A stretch of DNA of 64,000 nucleotides from the NCBI GenBank assembly GCA_024711025.1, contig JANJTP010000004.1, positions 1 through 64,000 of the forward strand. Direction: 5' to 3'. Positions 32,135-56,557 of the stretch are shown piece by piece; within the stretch, counting starts at the first letter, position 1; the number at the start of each line of letters is the position of its first letter. Both the position numbers and the translations under genes were made by a program. Below the pieces are notes generated by a model. That model saw only the letters and a list, made by a program, of their open reading frames with translations, ran no database searches and was not told where the DNA came from. Source of the DNA: Solirubrobacteraceae bacterium. Its GTDB lineage: Bacteria > Actinomycetota > Thermoleophilia > Solirubrobacterales > Solirubrobacteraceae.

Positions 32135-33196
32135 TCAGAGCGGGAGCGCCAGCTGTCTCGTCGCCGGCTGTGGGTCTCCCGCCGGCTCCAGGCCGCTGAC
32201 GCCCACGCCGAGCAGTCGCACGGGGCGCGCCGGCGCATACGCGCGAAGCAGCTCGACGGCGACGGGTGCGATCTCGGCCTCCTCGGCGGTCGCCCGCTCG
32301 AGCGTCCGCGCGCGGGTGACCGTCGTGAAGTCGTCCAGGCGCACCTTGATCCGCACGGTGCGACCGCGACGCCGGTGGCGCCGCAGGCCGTCGCACAGCT
32401 CGGTCGTGAGCTCGCGCAGGGCCGCCTCCATCTGCGCCGCGCTCGCGAGGTCGCGGTCGAACGTGGTCTCGCGCGACTCGCTCCGCGCGGCTCGGACGGG
32501 CACGACCACGTCGGAGTCCTCGAACCGCGCGCGAGCGCGCAGCCACGGCCCCTGGCGCGCACCGAACGTCTCGCCGAGCAGGGCCTCGTCCGCACCGGCG
32601 AGCTCGGCGAGCGTGGAGATGCCGAGCGAGGCGAGCCGCTCGGCGGTCCGTGGCCCGATTCCGGGAACCAGGCCGCAGGGCGCGCCGGCGAAGCGCTCGC
32701 ATGCCTGCTCACGGGTGAGGACGACGAAGCCGCGCGGCTTCTCGGCGTCCGAGGCGACCTTCGCAACGAGGCGGTTCGGGCCGATGCCGACCGATGCGCT
32801 CAGGCCGGTGCGCTCCGCGATCCGGGCGGCGAGCCGGCGCATCGCCGCACGGGGCGCGGCCAGCCCCTCGAGGTCCAGGTAGGCCTCGTCGAGGCCGAGC
32901 TGCTCGACGCGCTCGACATGGGCGCGGACGATCGCCATCACGCGCCTCGACATCTCCCGGTAGGCGGCGAAGTCGGGCGCGACGAGAATCGCCTGCGGGC
33001 ACAGGCGCCGGGCGCGCGCGGTCGGCATCGCCGAGCCGACGCCGAATCGCCGCGCCTCGTACGAGGCCGTCGTGACGACCGCACGGGGGCCGCTGCCGGA
33101 GACGATCACGGGCAGGCCGCGCAGCTCGGGGCGCCGCAGAAGCTCGACGCTCGCATAGAAGGCGTCGAGGTCCAGGTGGGCGATCGGCCCGGCCAT
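32135..33196 (-). CDS. dinB: DNA polymerase IV (Y-family)
   Basis: Translesion polymerase. 353 residues with the Y-family metal sites HLDLDAFYASVE (D9, D11) and LDEAYLDLEG (D103, E104), the SVGIGPNRLVAKVAS palm/fingers block, GLVPGIGPRTAERL (helix-hairpin-helix thumb) and a little-finger domain. The C-terminus ends QLALPL, a textbook beta-clamp-binding motif. No LexA-type operator was recognised upstream. Confidence 0.95.
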   Translation of the reverse strand: MAGPIAHLDLDAFYASVELLRRPELRGLPVIVSGSGPRAVVTTASYEARRFGVGSAMPTARARRLCPQAILVAPDFAAYREMSRRVMAIVRAHVERVEQLGLDEAYLDLEGLAAPRAAMRRLAARIAERTGLSASVGIGPNRLVAKVASDAEKPRGFVVLTREQACERFAGAPCGLVPGIGPRTAERLASLGISTLAELAGADEALLGETFGARQGPWLRARARFEDSDVVVPVRAARSESRETTFDRDLASAAQMEAALRELTTELCDGLRRHRRRGRTVRIKVRLDDFTTVTRARTLERATAEEAEIAPVAVELLRAYAPARPVRLLGVGVSGLEPAGDPQPATRQLALPL

Positions 33197-33248: not shown

Positions 33249-34226
33249 TCAGTGCGCGACGTACACCGTGCCGACGCCGTCGAAGCGCAACGCGGCGCGT
33301 ACGCCGGGGCCGAGATCCCACTCGCGCCCGCCGACGTAGGGCCCGCGGTCGACGACCGGCACGCGGACCTGGCGGCCTCGGTAGCGGATCGTGACCTTCG
33401 TCCCGCACGGCAGTGTCTTGTGGGCGACGCCCATCATCCCCGGGGTCAGCGAGCCGCCGCAGGCGAGCCCCTGGCCTTCGCCGTACCACGAGGCGAGCGC
33501 CGCTCGCAGGATGTTCATCCGGCCGGCGACGCGCCGGCCGGAGGCGAGCTGCGCGTCGCCGACGAGGCGCACGCGCACGATGGCGCTGAACGAGCTGCGC
33601 GAGCGGTGGCGCAGCAGGTAGGCCCCGCCGGAACGGGTGCGGGCGCGGGCGAGCGTCGCCCAGCGTCCGTGCCGCCCGCGGCGCTCAAGGACGATCCTGC
33701 GTCCCGCGATCGCGGGCAGCACGCGTCCGCTGACGCGGGTCAGCCCGCCCTGCCGCACGTTCAGGCGCCGGTGGCGCACGCCGACGATCGCGGCGACCTG
33801 CACCGATCGCTCGCGTGACCCGAGCCGGTCCGAAGCGCCCGTCGTCGCTGCAAGGGCGCCGCCGGCCAGGACGCGCACCGCGCCCGAGCGCTCCAGACGC
33901 GCCTGCAGCCGGTAGCCGCCGTCGGGGTCGGTGAGGCCACGGGCGACCGCGTGCCACGCTCCGCCGTGCGCCCGATGCTCGAGGACGACCTCGCGCCCCG
34001 CGCCCGCTCCGGCGATCCTCCCCCTCACGACCGCCTCCTGGCCGTAGCGGAGCGTGCGGTCGGCGAGCTGAGCGGTGATCGCCGACGGAGCGAGGGCGAT
34101 CGGCTGCTTGGCGGCGGTCGGCCGCGCCGCGACGGCGGGGCTCACAGCGGTCGCGGCGATGCCCACGGTGGTCATCAGCGCGCCGAGCGTCGTCGCTCGC
34201 AGGCAGGCAGTTGAGACGGCCCTCAT
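33249..34226 (-). CDS. RlpA-like secreted protein (double-psi beta-barrel)
   Basis: 325 residues with a signal peptide (MRAVST then hydrophobic to AVSPAVAA), two Ig-like/beta modules (ADRTLRYGQEAVVRGRIAG and RQGGLTRVSGRVLP), and a C-terminal RlpA/3D-type double-psi barrel: ALASWYGEGQGLACGGSLTPG, LPCGTKVTIRYRGRQ, PVVDRGPYVGGREWDLG. RlpA proteins act on peptidoglycan. The ATG at 34226 has SD GGAGGA; an upstream in-frame start would lie inside the riboswitch region. The gene is preceded by a ydaO-type c-di-AMP riboswitch and a CRP-type site. Confidence 0.88.
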   Translation of the reverse strand: MRAVSTACLRATTLGALMTTVGIAATAVSPAVAARPTAAKQPIALAPSAITAQLADRTLRYGQEAVVRGRIAGAGAGREVVLEHRAHGGAWHAVARGLTDPDGGYRLQARLERSGAVRVLAGGALAATTGASDRLGSRERSVQVAAIVGVRHRRLNVRQGGLTRVSGRVLPAIAGRRIVLERRGRHGRWATLARARTRSGGAYLLRHRSRSSFSAIVRVRLVGDAQLASGRRVAGRMNILRAALASWYGEGQGLACGGSLTPGMMGVAHKTLPCGTKVTIRYRGRQVRVPVVDRGPYVGGREWDLGPGVRAALRFDGVGTVYVAH

Positions 34227-34248
34227 CTGAGGTCCTCCTTCGCTTCTG

Positions 34249-34410
34249 CTGCCTGCGGAGTTAGCTGTCGGGCTCGCGGCCCCCGGCCACACGATCGGCG
34301 CGCGGCACGAAGTCGGTCGCTACGGCGGCAGCAGCCGCCGATTCGCCCCATCCGGCCCGCTCGTCACGGCCCGGCAGTGGGTCCCCCGCCCGTGCCCTCG
34401 TTTGACCGGG
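34249..34410 (-). promoter_or_regulatory. ydaO/yuaA-type c-di-AMP riboswitch
   Basis: On the minus strand the conserved blocks appear in order: GGGGGACCCA, GGGGCGAATC (34340-34349), a GTAG core, and GAGCCCGACAGCTAACTCCG followed by CAGGC (34251-34271). They match the ydaO/yuaA consensus, which usually represses wall-hydrolase and osmolyte genes when c-di-AMP binds. The aptamer ends about 25 nt before the ATG of the RlpA-like gene. The 5' boundary is approximate. Confidence 0.85.
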
Positions 34411-34430
34411 CACGGCTCGGCAGATGTTCG

Positions 34431-34472
34431 AGGCTAGCGACCCGGGAGTCGATTCGTGTGACGTCGATCACA
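34431..34472 (-). promoter_or_regulatory. Perfect CRP-type site TGTGA-N6-TCACA and promoter
   Basis: TGTGACGTCGATCACA (34457-34472) matches the CRP consensus exactly. On the minus strand a -10-like TAGCCT lies at 34431-34436, giving a start near 34424 and placing the operator centre at about -41, the class II activator position for the riboswitch-RlpA transcript. For the divergent acyltransferase gene the centre would be near -75. The region 34411-34539 holds no other gene. Confidence 0.6.
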
Positions 34473-34539: not shown

Positions 34540-36018
34540 GTGCCCCCGAGCGATCGCCTCAGCGCGCTGGACGCCCTGTTCCTGGACATCGAGCGCGGCT
34601 CGCCCGCGCACATGCATGTCGCGTCGCTGATGATCTTCGAGGGCGAGCCGCCTTCGTACGAGGAGACGCTGGGCGCGCTCGAGGAGCGGCTCCACCTCGT
34701 TCCGCGATACCGCCAGAAGCTCGCCTCGGTCCCCTATGGCCTGGGGCGCCCGGTCTGGGTCGACGATCCGCGGTTCAACCTCACCTTCCACCTGCGCCAC
34801 TCGGCGCTGCCGGCACCGGGCTCCGACGAGCAGCTCGCGGCGCTCGCCGGCCGGCTCTTCGCCGCCGCGCTCGACCGCGGCAAGCCGCTTTGGGAGATCC
34901 ATCTCGTCGAGGGCCTCGCACCGGCCGGCGACGGCTCGCCGCGGTTCGCGGTGATCGCCAAGACCCACCACGCGCTCGTCGACGGGATCTCGGGCGTGGA
35001 CGTGACGTCGGTGCTCTTCTCGAGCACCCCCGGTGCGCCGCCGGTCGGCCCGCCGGCGTCGCCGTGGATGCCCCGGCCGGAGCCGACCGGTGCCCAGGTG
35101 CTCGCCGACGCGCTGCTCGAGCGGGTCGTCTCGCCGGCGGAGGGCCTACGCTCGCTCTACCGGCTGTCGCACGCCCCGCGCAAGGCGACCGAGCGGGTCG
35201 TCACCCGGCTGGCGGCGGCTGGGGCGATGGCGTGGACCGGGCTGCGCGGAGCGCCGGACACGCCCCTCAACGTGCCGATCGGACCGCACCGGCGGTTCGG
35301 CTGGGTTGATGCTCCGCTGGCGCTCGCCAAGGAGGTCAAGAACGAGCTCGGGGGGACCGTCAACGACGTCGTTCTGACCGTGGTGTCGCTCGCGCTTGGG
35401 CGCTTCCTGCGCCGGCGAGGCTTCCCGACCGACGGGCTGGTGCTCAAGTCGATGGTTCCCGTGTCGGTGCGAGCGAGCGAGCGGCGCGGCGCGCTCGGAA
35501 ATCGCGTCGCCGCCGTCTGGGCGCCGCTGCCGATGGGCATCGAGGATCCGCGCGAGTGCTTCGCGGCCGTGCACGAGGCGATGGGCGACCTGAAGGCATC
35601 CGGCCAGGCGGTCGGCGCCGAGACGCTCACCGGCCTGGCCGACTTCGCGCCGACGACGATCTTCAGCCAGGCGGCGCGGCTGCAGGCCCGCCAGCGGATG
35701 TTCAACCTCGTCGTGACGAACGTCCCCGGCCCGCAGCGCCCGCTCTACCTCCTCGGCCGACGGATGGTCGCGATCTACCCGGTCGTGCCGCTCGCTCCCC
35801 GCACCGCGCTCGGCGTGGCGATCATCAGCTACGCCGGCCGGCTGGGCTTCGGGCTGACGGCCGACTTCGACGCGCTGCCCGATCTCGGCGATCTCGTCGA
35901 GGACCTCGAGGGCGCCCTCTTCGATCTCGGCCGTGCCGCAGAGGTCGAGCGCCATCCATGGCCGATGCACGAGCGACACGCGATCACGAGCGCACACACG
36001 CCGCGCGAGCGGCGCTGA
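34540..36018 (+). CDS. Wax ester synthase/diacylglycerol acyltransferase (WS/DGAT)
   Basis: 492 residues, the usual family size. The N-terminal block LSALDALFLDIERGSPAHMHV and the active-site HHxxxDG motif (H143, H144, D148, G149) are intact, as are FNLVVTNVPGPQRPLYL and the C-terminal LGVAIISYAGRLGFGLTAD. Makes wax esters or triacylglycerol from acyl-CoA, typical of lipid-storing actinobacteria. The GTG start has CAGAAT ending 7 nt before it and no SD, suggesting leaderless mRNA. A CRP-type site is 68 bases upstream. Confidence 0.93.
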   Translation: MPPSDRLSALDALFLDIERGSPAHMHVASLMIFEGEPPSYEETLGALEERLHLVPRYRQKLASVPYGLGRPVWVDDPRFNLTFHLRHSALPAPGSDEQLAALAGRLFAAALDRGKPLWEIHLVEGLAPAGDGSPRFAVIAKTHHALVDGISGVDVTSVLFSSTPGAPPVGPPASPWMPRPEPTGAQVLADALLERVVSPAEGLRSLYRLSHAPRKATERVVTRLAAAGAMAWTGLRGAPDTPLNVPIGPHRRFGWVDAPLALAKEVKNELGGTVNDVVLTVVSLALGRFLRRRGFPTDGLVLKSMVPVSVRASERRGALGNRVAAVWAPLPMGIEDPRECFAAVHEAMGDLKASGQAVGAETLTGLADFAPTTIFSQAARLQARQRMFNLVVTNVPGPQRPLYLLGRRMVAIYPVVPLAPRTALGVAIISYAGRLGFGLTADFDALPDLGDLVEDLEGALFDLGRAAEVERHPWPMHERHAITSAHTPRERR

Positions 36019-55479: not shown

Positions 55480-56406
55480 TCACAGACCAGCCGGATGGCG
55501 TACGACGTAGCCTGCGGTGGAGCGCATCTCACCGTCCCATCGTGAGCCGTCGTCCATCCCCGAGGTGTCGTAGCGCAGGACCCCGCGGGCGGTCCGGATC
55601 GTCATGTACGCGTGGCCGGGGTTCGCATAGACCGTGATCCAGCGCCCCCTGCCCGGCGAGCCCCAGCGCATGAGCTGGCCGGAATCCAGGGGACTGCGCA
55701 ATGCACCGGCGCCCCGCAGGACGTACGAGACCGATCCCGAGCAGTCATAGCCGCTGTCGTCGAACGAGCGATGCCCGCCGCCGTAGCGGTAGGGCTTGCG
55801 GGCGATCCGGTGGGCGGCGGCAATCGCCTCGACGACGGCCTGCGGCACGCCGTCCACCGTCGGCCCCGCCCCGCGTCCGGCACGCCGTCGCGAGGCGTGC
55901 TCGAGCACCGGCCGGCCGGCGCCCCGGCCGAGCGCCCGCCAGGTCGCCGGGCCGACGACTCCGTCCGCGGTGAGCCCGCGTGAGCGCTGGAAGCGTCGCA
56001 CGGCGCGCAGCGTCGCCGGGCCGAACACCCCGTCGGCGCCGAGCCCGAGACGTCGCTGCAGCACCCGCACCGAGCGCTTGATCCGCGCGCTTCCGGCGGC
56101 GCCGCGACGGGTGCGGCCGATCGAGCGGGTCAGCGCGCGCCACGTCGCCGCGCCGACGACGCCGTCGGCCGTCAGACGATGACCTCGCTGGAAGCGCCGC
56201 ACGGCTCTCTTCGTGCCGGCACCGAAGATCCCGTCGACGGGCAGCCGCAGGGTGCGCTGGAGGCACTCGACCGTCCTGCCGCGATCGCCCGGCTCGAGCG
56301 TCGGCAGGGCGTGGGCCGCGGGGGCGGCCCAGAGGGCGAGCAGGAGGACGGCCAGCCAGGCGGCGACCGGCGGCAGGCGGCGGCGGAGGGTCGTTCGGTG
56401 ACTCAT
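55480..56406 (-). CDS. Peptidoglycan-binding NlpC/P60-type endopeptidase
   Basis: 308 residues: signal peptide ([13 protein letters not shown]), two PG_binding_1 domains ([39 protein letters not shown]), and a C-terminal NlpC/P60-like domain with [20 protein letters not shown] (catalytic Cys) and NPGHAYMTI (catalytic His). It probably cuts peptide stems of peptidoglycan. The start is ATG 56406, immediately downstream of a c-di-AMP riboswitch; upstream in-frame codons lie within the aptamer. Confidence 0.88.
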
Positions 56407-56415
56407 CGCGGTGGG

Positions 56416-56557
56416 CGCCTGCGGGGTTAGCTGGCGGGCTCGCGGCACGGCCGCTACGCCGCGGATGCGGCGATTCGCCCCGGCGGCCTGTGGCGGCCGC
56501 ATTGGTTCCCCCGCTCCCCGGCCTCGTGGACCGCGGATTCGGCGTTCGGCGACGCTA
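56416..56557 (-). promoter_or_regulatory. Second ydaO/yuaA-type c-di-AMP riboswitch and its promoter
   Basis: On the minus strand GCCGAATCC, GGGGAACCA, GGGGCGAATC (56472-56481), GTAGCGGC and GAGCCCGCCAGCTAACCCCG then CAGGC (56417-56437) occur in order, matching the ydaO consensus and the first riboswitch near 34.3 kb. A -10-like TAGCGT (56552-56557) would start the RNA close to the aptamer. The aptamer ends about 10 nt before the ATG of the NlpC/P60 gene; the SD-like GCAGGC lies within its 3' strand. The rest of the gap to 56700 shows no gene. Confidence 0.82.

What the first reader, a model, noticed from the sequence alone, without database searches (positions are those of the whole stretch)
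34249..34472. CRP-type site stacked on a c-di-AMP riboswitch upstream of an RlpA-like wall protein
The sequence shows a perfect TGTGA-N6-TCACA (34457-34472), a -10-like TAGCCT placing it near -41, and a ydaO-type aptamer leading to the RlpA-like gene. Dual control by Crp and a ydaO riboswitch is reported for rpfA of Streptomyces coelicolor; the same logic at an RlpA-type gene would join two nucleotide signals on wall remodelling. The promoter position is inference. The same site could also act on the divergent WS/DGAT gene.
Basis: partly seen in the sequence, partly recalled or inferred. Interest (0 to 1): 0.7.

Follow-up and report, generated by a model that had tools for sequence, protein, structure and literature searches.

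The report
CRP promoter feeding a c-di-AMP riboswitch
In this actinobacterium and most of its relatives across an order, a cell-wall gene (rlpA) is read from a promoter with a cAMP-receptor (CRP) site and its message begins with a c-di-AMP sensor, so one wall gene appears to be set by two nucleotide signals and, in some relatives, by the DNA-damage repressor LexA as well.

Summary
Confirmed and extended. A perfect TGTGA-N6-TCACA lies at 34457-34472; a TANNNT -10 (34436-34431) starts 20 nt beyond it, giving class II CRP geometry (centre near -40). A c-di-AMP aptamer follows (34432-34236, minus strand; 36.7 bits, just under Rfam's cut-off of 38, E 7.5e-7 per genome), then an RlpA-like gene. The genome encodes a CRP-family protein with E. 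coli CRP's recognition residues, class III cyclase homologues and a DisA-type domain. Of its seven ydaO aptamers only this one has a CRP site. The stack is conserved: of 70 rlpA homologues chosen by protein alone, 58 have a ydaO core, and 46 of those a CRP site with at most one mismatch (permuted palindromes: 6 of 1682). Seventy other ydaO leaders in the order have none. The -10 recurs at 20-22 nt in 50 of 58. There is no terminator, so translational control is likelier (inferred). CRP-family plus ydaO control is already reported for S. coelicolor rpfA and C. glutamicum nlpC: a new variant of a known kind. New: several related genera add a LexA operator at the -10/start, matching the box before their own lexA; the window lacks it. 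All evidence is sequence-based.

The parts
34457..34472 (.). CRP/cAMP-receptor site, perfect palindrome TGTGA-CGTCGA-TCACA
   Evidence: Exact match. 46 of 58 rlpA homologues with a ydaO core have it with at most 1 mismatch, against 6 of 1682 trials with permuted palindromes.
34431..34436 (-). -10 element TAGCCT (TANNNT), 20 nt after the CRP site; expected start about 34424-34425, CRP centre near -40
   Evidence: TANNNT at 20-22 nt in 50 of 58 orthologues, shuffled mean 1.4, max 6. Start site not mapped.
34236..34432 (-). c-di-AMP (ydaO/yuaA) riboswitch aptamer; P1 = 34419-34422 with 34250-34253; CAGCUAAC at 34260-34267
   Evidence: RF00379 36.7 bits (cut-off 38), E 7.5e-7 in genome; pair and loop conservation in 58 orthologues.
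34234..34240 (-). Shine-Dalgarno AAGGAGG, about 10 nt after P1; no room or U-tract for an intrinsic terminator
   Evidence: Position; leader survey of 58 loci: core-to-start 26-52 nt, no U4 tract.
33249..34226 (-). rlpA-like gene: 325 aa, C-terminal DPBB/lytic transglycosylase domain
   Evidence: PF03330 E 8.7e-12, above cut-off; hydrophobic N-terminal segment by eye.
32135..33196 (-). dinB (DNA polymerase IV, IMS family), 52 nt downstream of rlpA on the same strand; possible operon partner
   Evidence: PF00817 6.6e-48, PF11799 1e-27; same order in many relatives; no U-tract in the gap.
34540..36018 (+). divergent WS/DGAT acyltransferase gene; probably not the main target of the CRP site
   Evidence: PF03007 2e-63; no TA dinucleotide between the site and its start.
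34417..34430 (-). CGAAC-ATCT-GCCGA: left half only of the LexA box that several relatives have here; 4 of 10 positions mismatch, so not counted as a site
   Evidence: full box at this position in related genera.

Best explanation
A two-input control region for rlpA. cAMP-bound CRP binds the palindrome and recruits RNA polymerase at a class II promoter whose -10 is TAGCCT (architecture shown by conservation; binding and activation inferred). The transcript starts at about 34424, just before P1 of a c-di-AMP aptamer, so every message from this promoter carries the riboswitch (inferred from the -10). High c-di-AMP lowers RlpA output (an OFF switch by analogy with characterised actinobacterial members), most likely by limiting ribosome access, since the Shine-Dalgarno lies right behind P1 and there is no terminator (inferred). 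rlpA may be co-transcribed with dinB: CRP would then act on both genes and a translational riboswitch on rlpA alone.
For: Exact CRP site, 5 in the genome against 0 control. CRP protein with a cNMP-binding domain and a Crp HTH; its nearest solved relatives are Crp/Fnr-family regulators; it keeps the R180/E181/R185 pattern of E. coli CRP (SSRESASR; residue numbers recalled, sequence). DAC domain of the DisA type and class III cyclase homologues. Aptamer significant and structurally conserved. Stack conserved: 44 of 232 genomes and 14 of 54 genera by exact pattern, 0 in the control; 46 of 58 protein-chosen rlpA loci with a ydaO core. Specific: none of 70 other ydaO leaders has a site with at most 1 mismatch, and the genome's second RlpA-like gene has ydaO but no CRP site. 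-10 at fixed spacing. Translational level: no U-tract and 26-52 nt from core to start; a ydaO riboswitch that most likely acts at translation is reported in C. glutamicum (PMC9960051).
Against: No start site, binding or expression data. The aptamer scores just under Rfam's cut-off. CRP-family proteins can repress at some promoters. No conserved switch over the ribosome site was found: a strong alternative helix in the window (P1 3' strand with early codons) is not conserved, mean z -0.23. S. coelicolor rpfA is reported to work by termination (PMC10117811), so the level of control cannot be assumed. Relatives are not independent, so the counts overstate independent events.
Confidence: 0.82

Rival explanations
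1. The CRP site belongs to the divergent WS/DGAT gene, or serves both genes equally, and rlpA has another promoter.
For: WS/DGAT is divergent at this place in many relatives; the site is symmetrical.
Against: No TA at all between the site and the WS/DGAT start on that strand. The site persists where no WS/DGAT was found in the flank held, e.g. L034, L042-L045, L058, L059. The TANNNT spacing is conserved on the rlpA side; the other side was examined in the window only.
Confidence: 0.1
2. CRP represses the promoter rather than activating it.
For: Geometry alone does not fix the sign; some CRP-family regulators repress.
Against: A site centred near -40 with a free -10 is the classic activating arrangement (established knowledge of class II CRP promoters).
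Confidence: 0.15
3. The riboswitch acts by transcription attenuation (possibly Rho-dependent), as reported for S. coelicolor rpfA, not by translation.
For: The characterised relative works by premature termination (PMC10117811); Rho sites are not visible by these methods.
Against: No U4 tract in any of 58 leaders and only 26-52 nt from core to start codon.
Confidence: 0.25
4. The CRP-like palindrome is a chance match, or a site of another CRP/FNR-family protein (the genome has a second one, L013).
For: A second family member exists.
Against: Chance is excluded by conservation. The second protein reads TPETVSR in the recognition helix, without the R180 equivalent, and lacks a canonical cyclic-nucleotide phosphate-binding motif by eye, so TGTGA fits L014 better.
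Confidence: 0.06

Closest known systems
rpfA of Streptomyces coelicolor (ydaO riboswitch plus cAMP and ppGpp inputs; St-Onge et al., as cited in PMC9960051 and PMC10117811)
   Same: A cAMP-linked input (Crp, from the finding and from memory) and a c-di-AMP riboswitch on a cell-wall lytic gene.
   Different: The gene is an Rpf enzyme, not RlpA-like; the reported mechanism is premature termination, whereas here there is no terminator; here the stack is shown to be conserved across an order.
nlpC (cg2402) of Corynebacterium glutamicum: GlxR sites plus ydaO riboswitch (PMC9960051)
   Same: Binding sites for a cAMP-dependent CRP-family regulator (GlxR) and a c-di-AMP OFF riboswitch on a wall peptidase; most likely translational.
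   Different: NlpC/P60 peptidase; further regulators MtrA and EsrR; promoter geometry not compared here. In the order studied here the sampled NlpC/P60 genes with ydaO have no CRP site.
DNA-damage-induced wall or division genes such as chiZ (Rv2719c) and yneA (PMC3989709)
   Same: DNA damage linked to a wall-acting protein, as the LexA box in relatives suggests.
   Different: No CRP site or c-di-AMP riboswitch is mentioned in the passages read; the box is absent from this window.

Membership tests
c-di-AMP riboswitch (ydaO/yuaA, RF00379) | Score at or above Rfam's gathering cut-off (38 bits) | tested here: not met
   36.7 bits in the window. Of 20 orthologous loci scanned, 13 pass, one has 33.8 bits and 6 gave no match at E 0.001; family membership is therefore claimed on the next row, not on the cut-off.
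c-di-AMP riboswitch (ydaO/yuaA, RF00379) | Significant full-length match, core helices and conserved loops | tested here: met
   E 7.5e-7 in the genome, model positions 1-134; pairs and loops conserved in 58 leaders.
c-di-AMP riboswitch (ydaO/yuaA, RF00379) | Binds c-di-AMP and changes expression | not testable with these tools
   Needs in-line probing and reporters. A DAC-domain gene is present.
CRP-regulated class II promoter | TGTGA-N6-TCACA centred near -41 with a -10 | tested here: met
   Exact site, TANNNT 20 nt on; conserved spacing. The start itself is inferred.
CRP-regulated class II promoter | A CRP with matching recognition helix, and cyclases, in the genome | tested here: met
   L014 1486-2187: cNMP_binding and Crp HTH, RE...R pattern, class III cyclase homologues. 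cAMP binding not tested.
RlpA family | DPBB lytic transglycosylase domain | tested here: met
   PF03330 45.6 bits, cut-off 28.8.
RlpA family | NCBIfam rlpA subfamily cut-off (TIGR00413, 82 bits) | tested here: not met
   28.1 bits; so it is called RlpA-like (DPBB), not RlpA in the strict sense.
LexA (SOS) regulon | CGAAC-N4-GTTCG operator in the window's promoter | tested here: not met
   Only a left half (4 of 10 mismatched); full boxes in relatives.

The most novel reading that the evidence does not exclude
In several genera of this order the rlpA leader is a three-input device: CRP activation, a LexA operator overlapping the -10/start, and a c-di-AMP riboswitch, so that energy state, DNA damage (SOS) and a second messenger that DisA ties to DNA integrity meet on one wall enzyme, often with dinB downstream. 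The window would be a two-input version that lacks a working LexA box.
Probability: 0.6. Interest if true: 0.75.

Novelty: new variant of a known kind. Interest (0 to 1): 0.62.

Why it matters
It shows that joining cAMP-CRP and c-di-AMP control is not a quirk of one Streptomyces gene but a conserved arrangement at a different wall enzyme throughout an order of little-studied actinobacteria, which argues that this pairing of signals is functionally important. It also gives natural contrasts for experiments: leaders with and without the CRP site, with and without the LexA box, and a ydaO switch with no terminator.

Tried and rejected
WS/DGAT as main CRP target: not favoured. Conserved alternative helix between the P1 3' strand and early codons as expression platform: strong in the window (z -2.2) but not in orthologues, mean z -0.23. 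Local Shine-Dalgarno hairpin: CCUC/CUCC is enriched between SD and start (22 of 40, shuffled 7.3), but relatedness is not corrected and the control set was too small (3), so only a lead. One inner helix (GCG) was mis-registered by my script and is not used. LexA box in the window: not present. A phylum-wide sample (396 genomes) found the exact CRP+ydaO pattern only in this order; that pattern fixes spacing and exact letters, so it would miss looser cases such as rpfA.

Full report
Observation. The palindrome TGTGACGTCGATCACA is at 34457-34472. It is the only exact match in the window (with two mismatches the window is at chance level) and one of five in the 3.1 Mb genome, against none for the reversed pattern. 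On the minus strand TAGCCT follows 20 nt later (34436-34431). The default Rfam scan did not list the leader, but a local scan gives RF00379 at 34432-34236 with 36.7 bits, E 5.9e-7, against a cut-off of 38, and the genome search gives E 7.5e-7. The gene behind it encodes a 325-residue protein with a DPBB/lytic transglycosylase domain.

Machinery. The genome has a CRP-family protein (L014 1486-2187) with cNMP-binding and Crp HTH domains, whose nearest solved relatives are Crp/Fnr-family regulators. Its recognition helix reads SSRESASR, keeping the R, E and R that E. coli CRP uses for TGTGA (from memory). A second family member (L013) reads TPETVSR and is a poorer fit. A DAC domain of the DisA type and several class III cyclase domains are present.

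Conservation. An exact CRP-to-ydaO pattern occurs in 44 of 232 genomes of the order, in 14 of 54 genera, and never in the control. Of those 44, 40 are followed by an rlpA-like gene, 2 by an Rpf-like transglycosylase (L050, L051; PF06737 for L050) and 2 are cut by contig ends. Because that set was selected for the site, I took 70 rlpA homologues by protein similarity alone, the best match of each of 70 genomes. 58 have a ydaO core upstream; of these 46 have a CRP site with at most one mismatch, against 6 of 1682 trials with permuted half-sites. By my count from the genus labels these 46 come from about 20 genera in four families. By contrast, 70 ydaO leaders sampled by the aptamer alone, the window's own leader excluded, have none with at most one mismatch. 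Some of these 70 also precede RlpA-type paralogues, and the genome's own second RlpA-like gene lies behind a ydaO aptamer without a CRP site. The CRP site therefore belongs to this particular rlpA lineage.

Promoter. Anchored on the CRP site, TANNNT begins 20-22 nt beyond it in 50 of 58 leaders, against 1.4 in shuffles. The implied start lies just before P1 in the window, so the aptamer is in every transcript from this promoter. This is class II geometry; activation is inferred.

Aptamer and output. In 58 leaders P1, P2, P3 and the inner helices are paired in nearly all sequences, with changes on both sides at several pairs (CAGCUAAC is invariant but was also the search key). The start codon is 26-52 nt behind the core and no leader has a U4 tract. 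Intrinsic termination is thus unlikely; translational control, as concluded for C. glutamicum nlpC (PMC9960051), is the better guess. S. coelicolor rpfA is reported to terminate instead (PMC10117811). I found no conserved alternative helix.

LexA. In several relatives the bases right after the -10 form CGAAC-N4-GTTCG: 14 of 60 leaders exact and 4 with one mismatch, against none at that level for eight permuted palindromes. The same box precedes lexA in all 21 genomes in which a lexA gene was found, including this one. Exact CRP-LexA pairs occur in 13 of 232 genomes and never in the control; in 11 of these the pair is at rlpA. In the protein-chosen set 11 of 58 are exact. The genera include g5, g7, g18, g19, g44, g47 and g53. 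The window keeps only a left half. dinB follows rlpA on the same strand in the window and many relatives, but in g18 another gene follows, so the box is not explained by dinB alone.

Verdict. The dual logic is already reported for other wall genes of actinobacteria, so this is a new variant of a known kind. Its order-wide conservation at rlpA and the LexA box in relatives are the parts I did not find in the open papers searched; most subscription papers are not in that library. Limits: many genomes are probably metagenome assemblies, relatives are not independent, and nothing here is experimental.

Noticed in passing
window 56400-56554 (-): A second c-di-AMP riboswitch, above Rfam's cut-off (45.2 bits), upstream of an NlpC/P60-type gene (motif match only) and without a CRP site nearby.
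   Followed up: partly
window 32135-33196 (-): dinB (Pol IV) sits 52 nt behind rlpA on the same strand; no LexA box with fewer than 3 mismatches on that strand from 33100 through rlpA to the promoter (34560).
   Followed up: partly
L009 1501-1544 (own genome, C13 19308-19351): Two exact CRP sites 28 nt apart just upstream of a gene that by eye resembles a TlyA/FtsJ-type methyltransferase: a likely CRP target.
   Followed up: no
L222 and L223 (two genomes of genus g25), about position 1501 on the matched strand: CRP site followed by a LexA-type box without a ydaO core, in front of a lysine/alanine-rich protein.
   Followed up: no
L050 and L051 (genus g12): CRP plus ydaO in front of an Rpf-like transglycosylase instead of rlpA, closer to the Streptomyces rpfA case.
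   Followed up: partly
rlpA leaders, SD to start codon: CCUC/CUCC is over-represented between Shine-Dalgarno and start (22 of 40, shuffled mean 7.3), a possible local hairpin over the ribosome site.
   Followed up: partly
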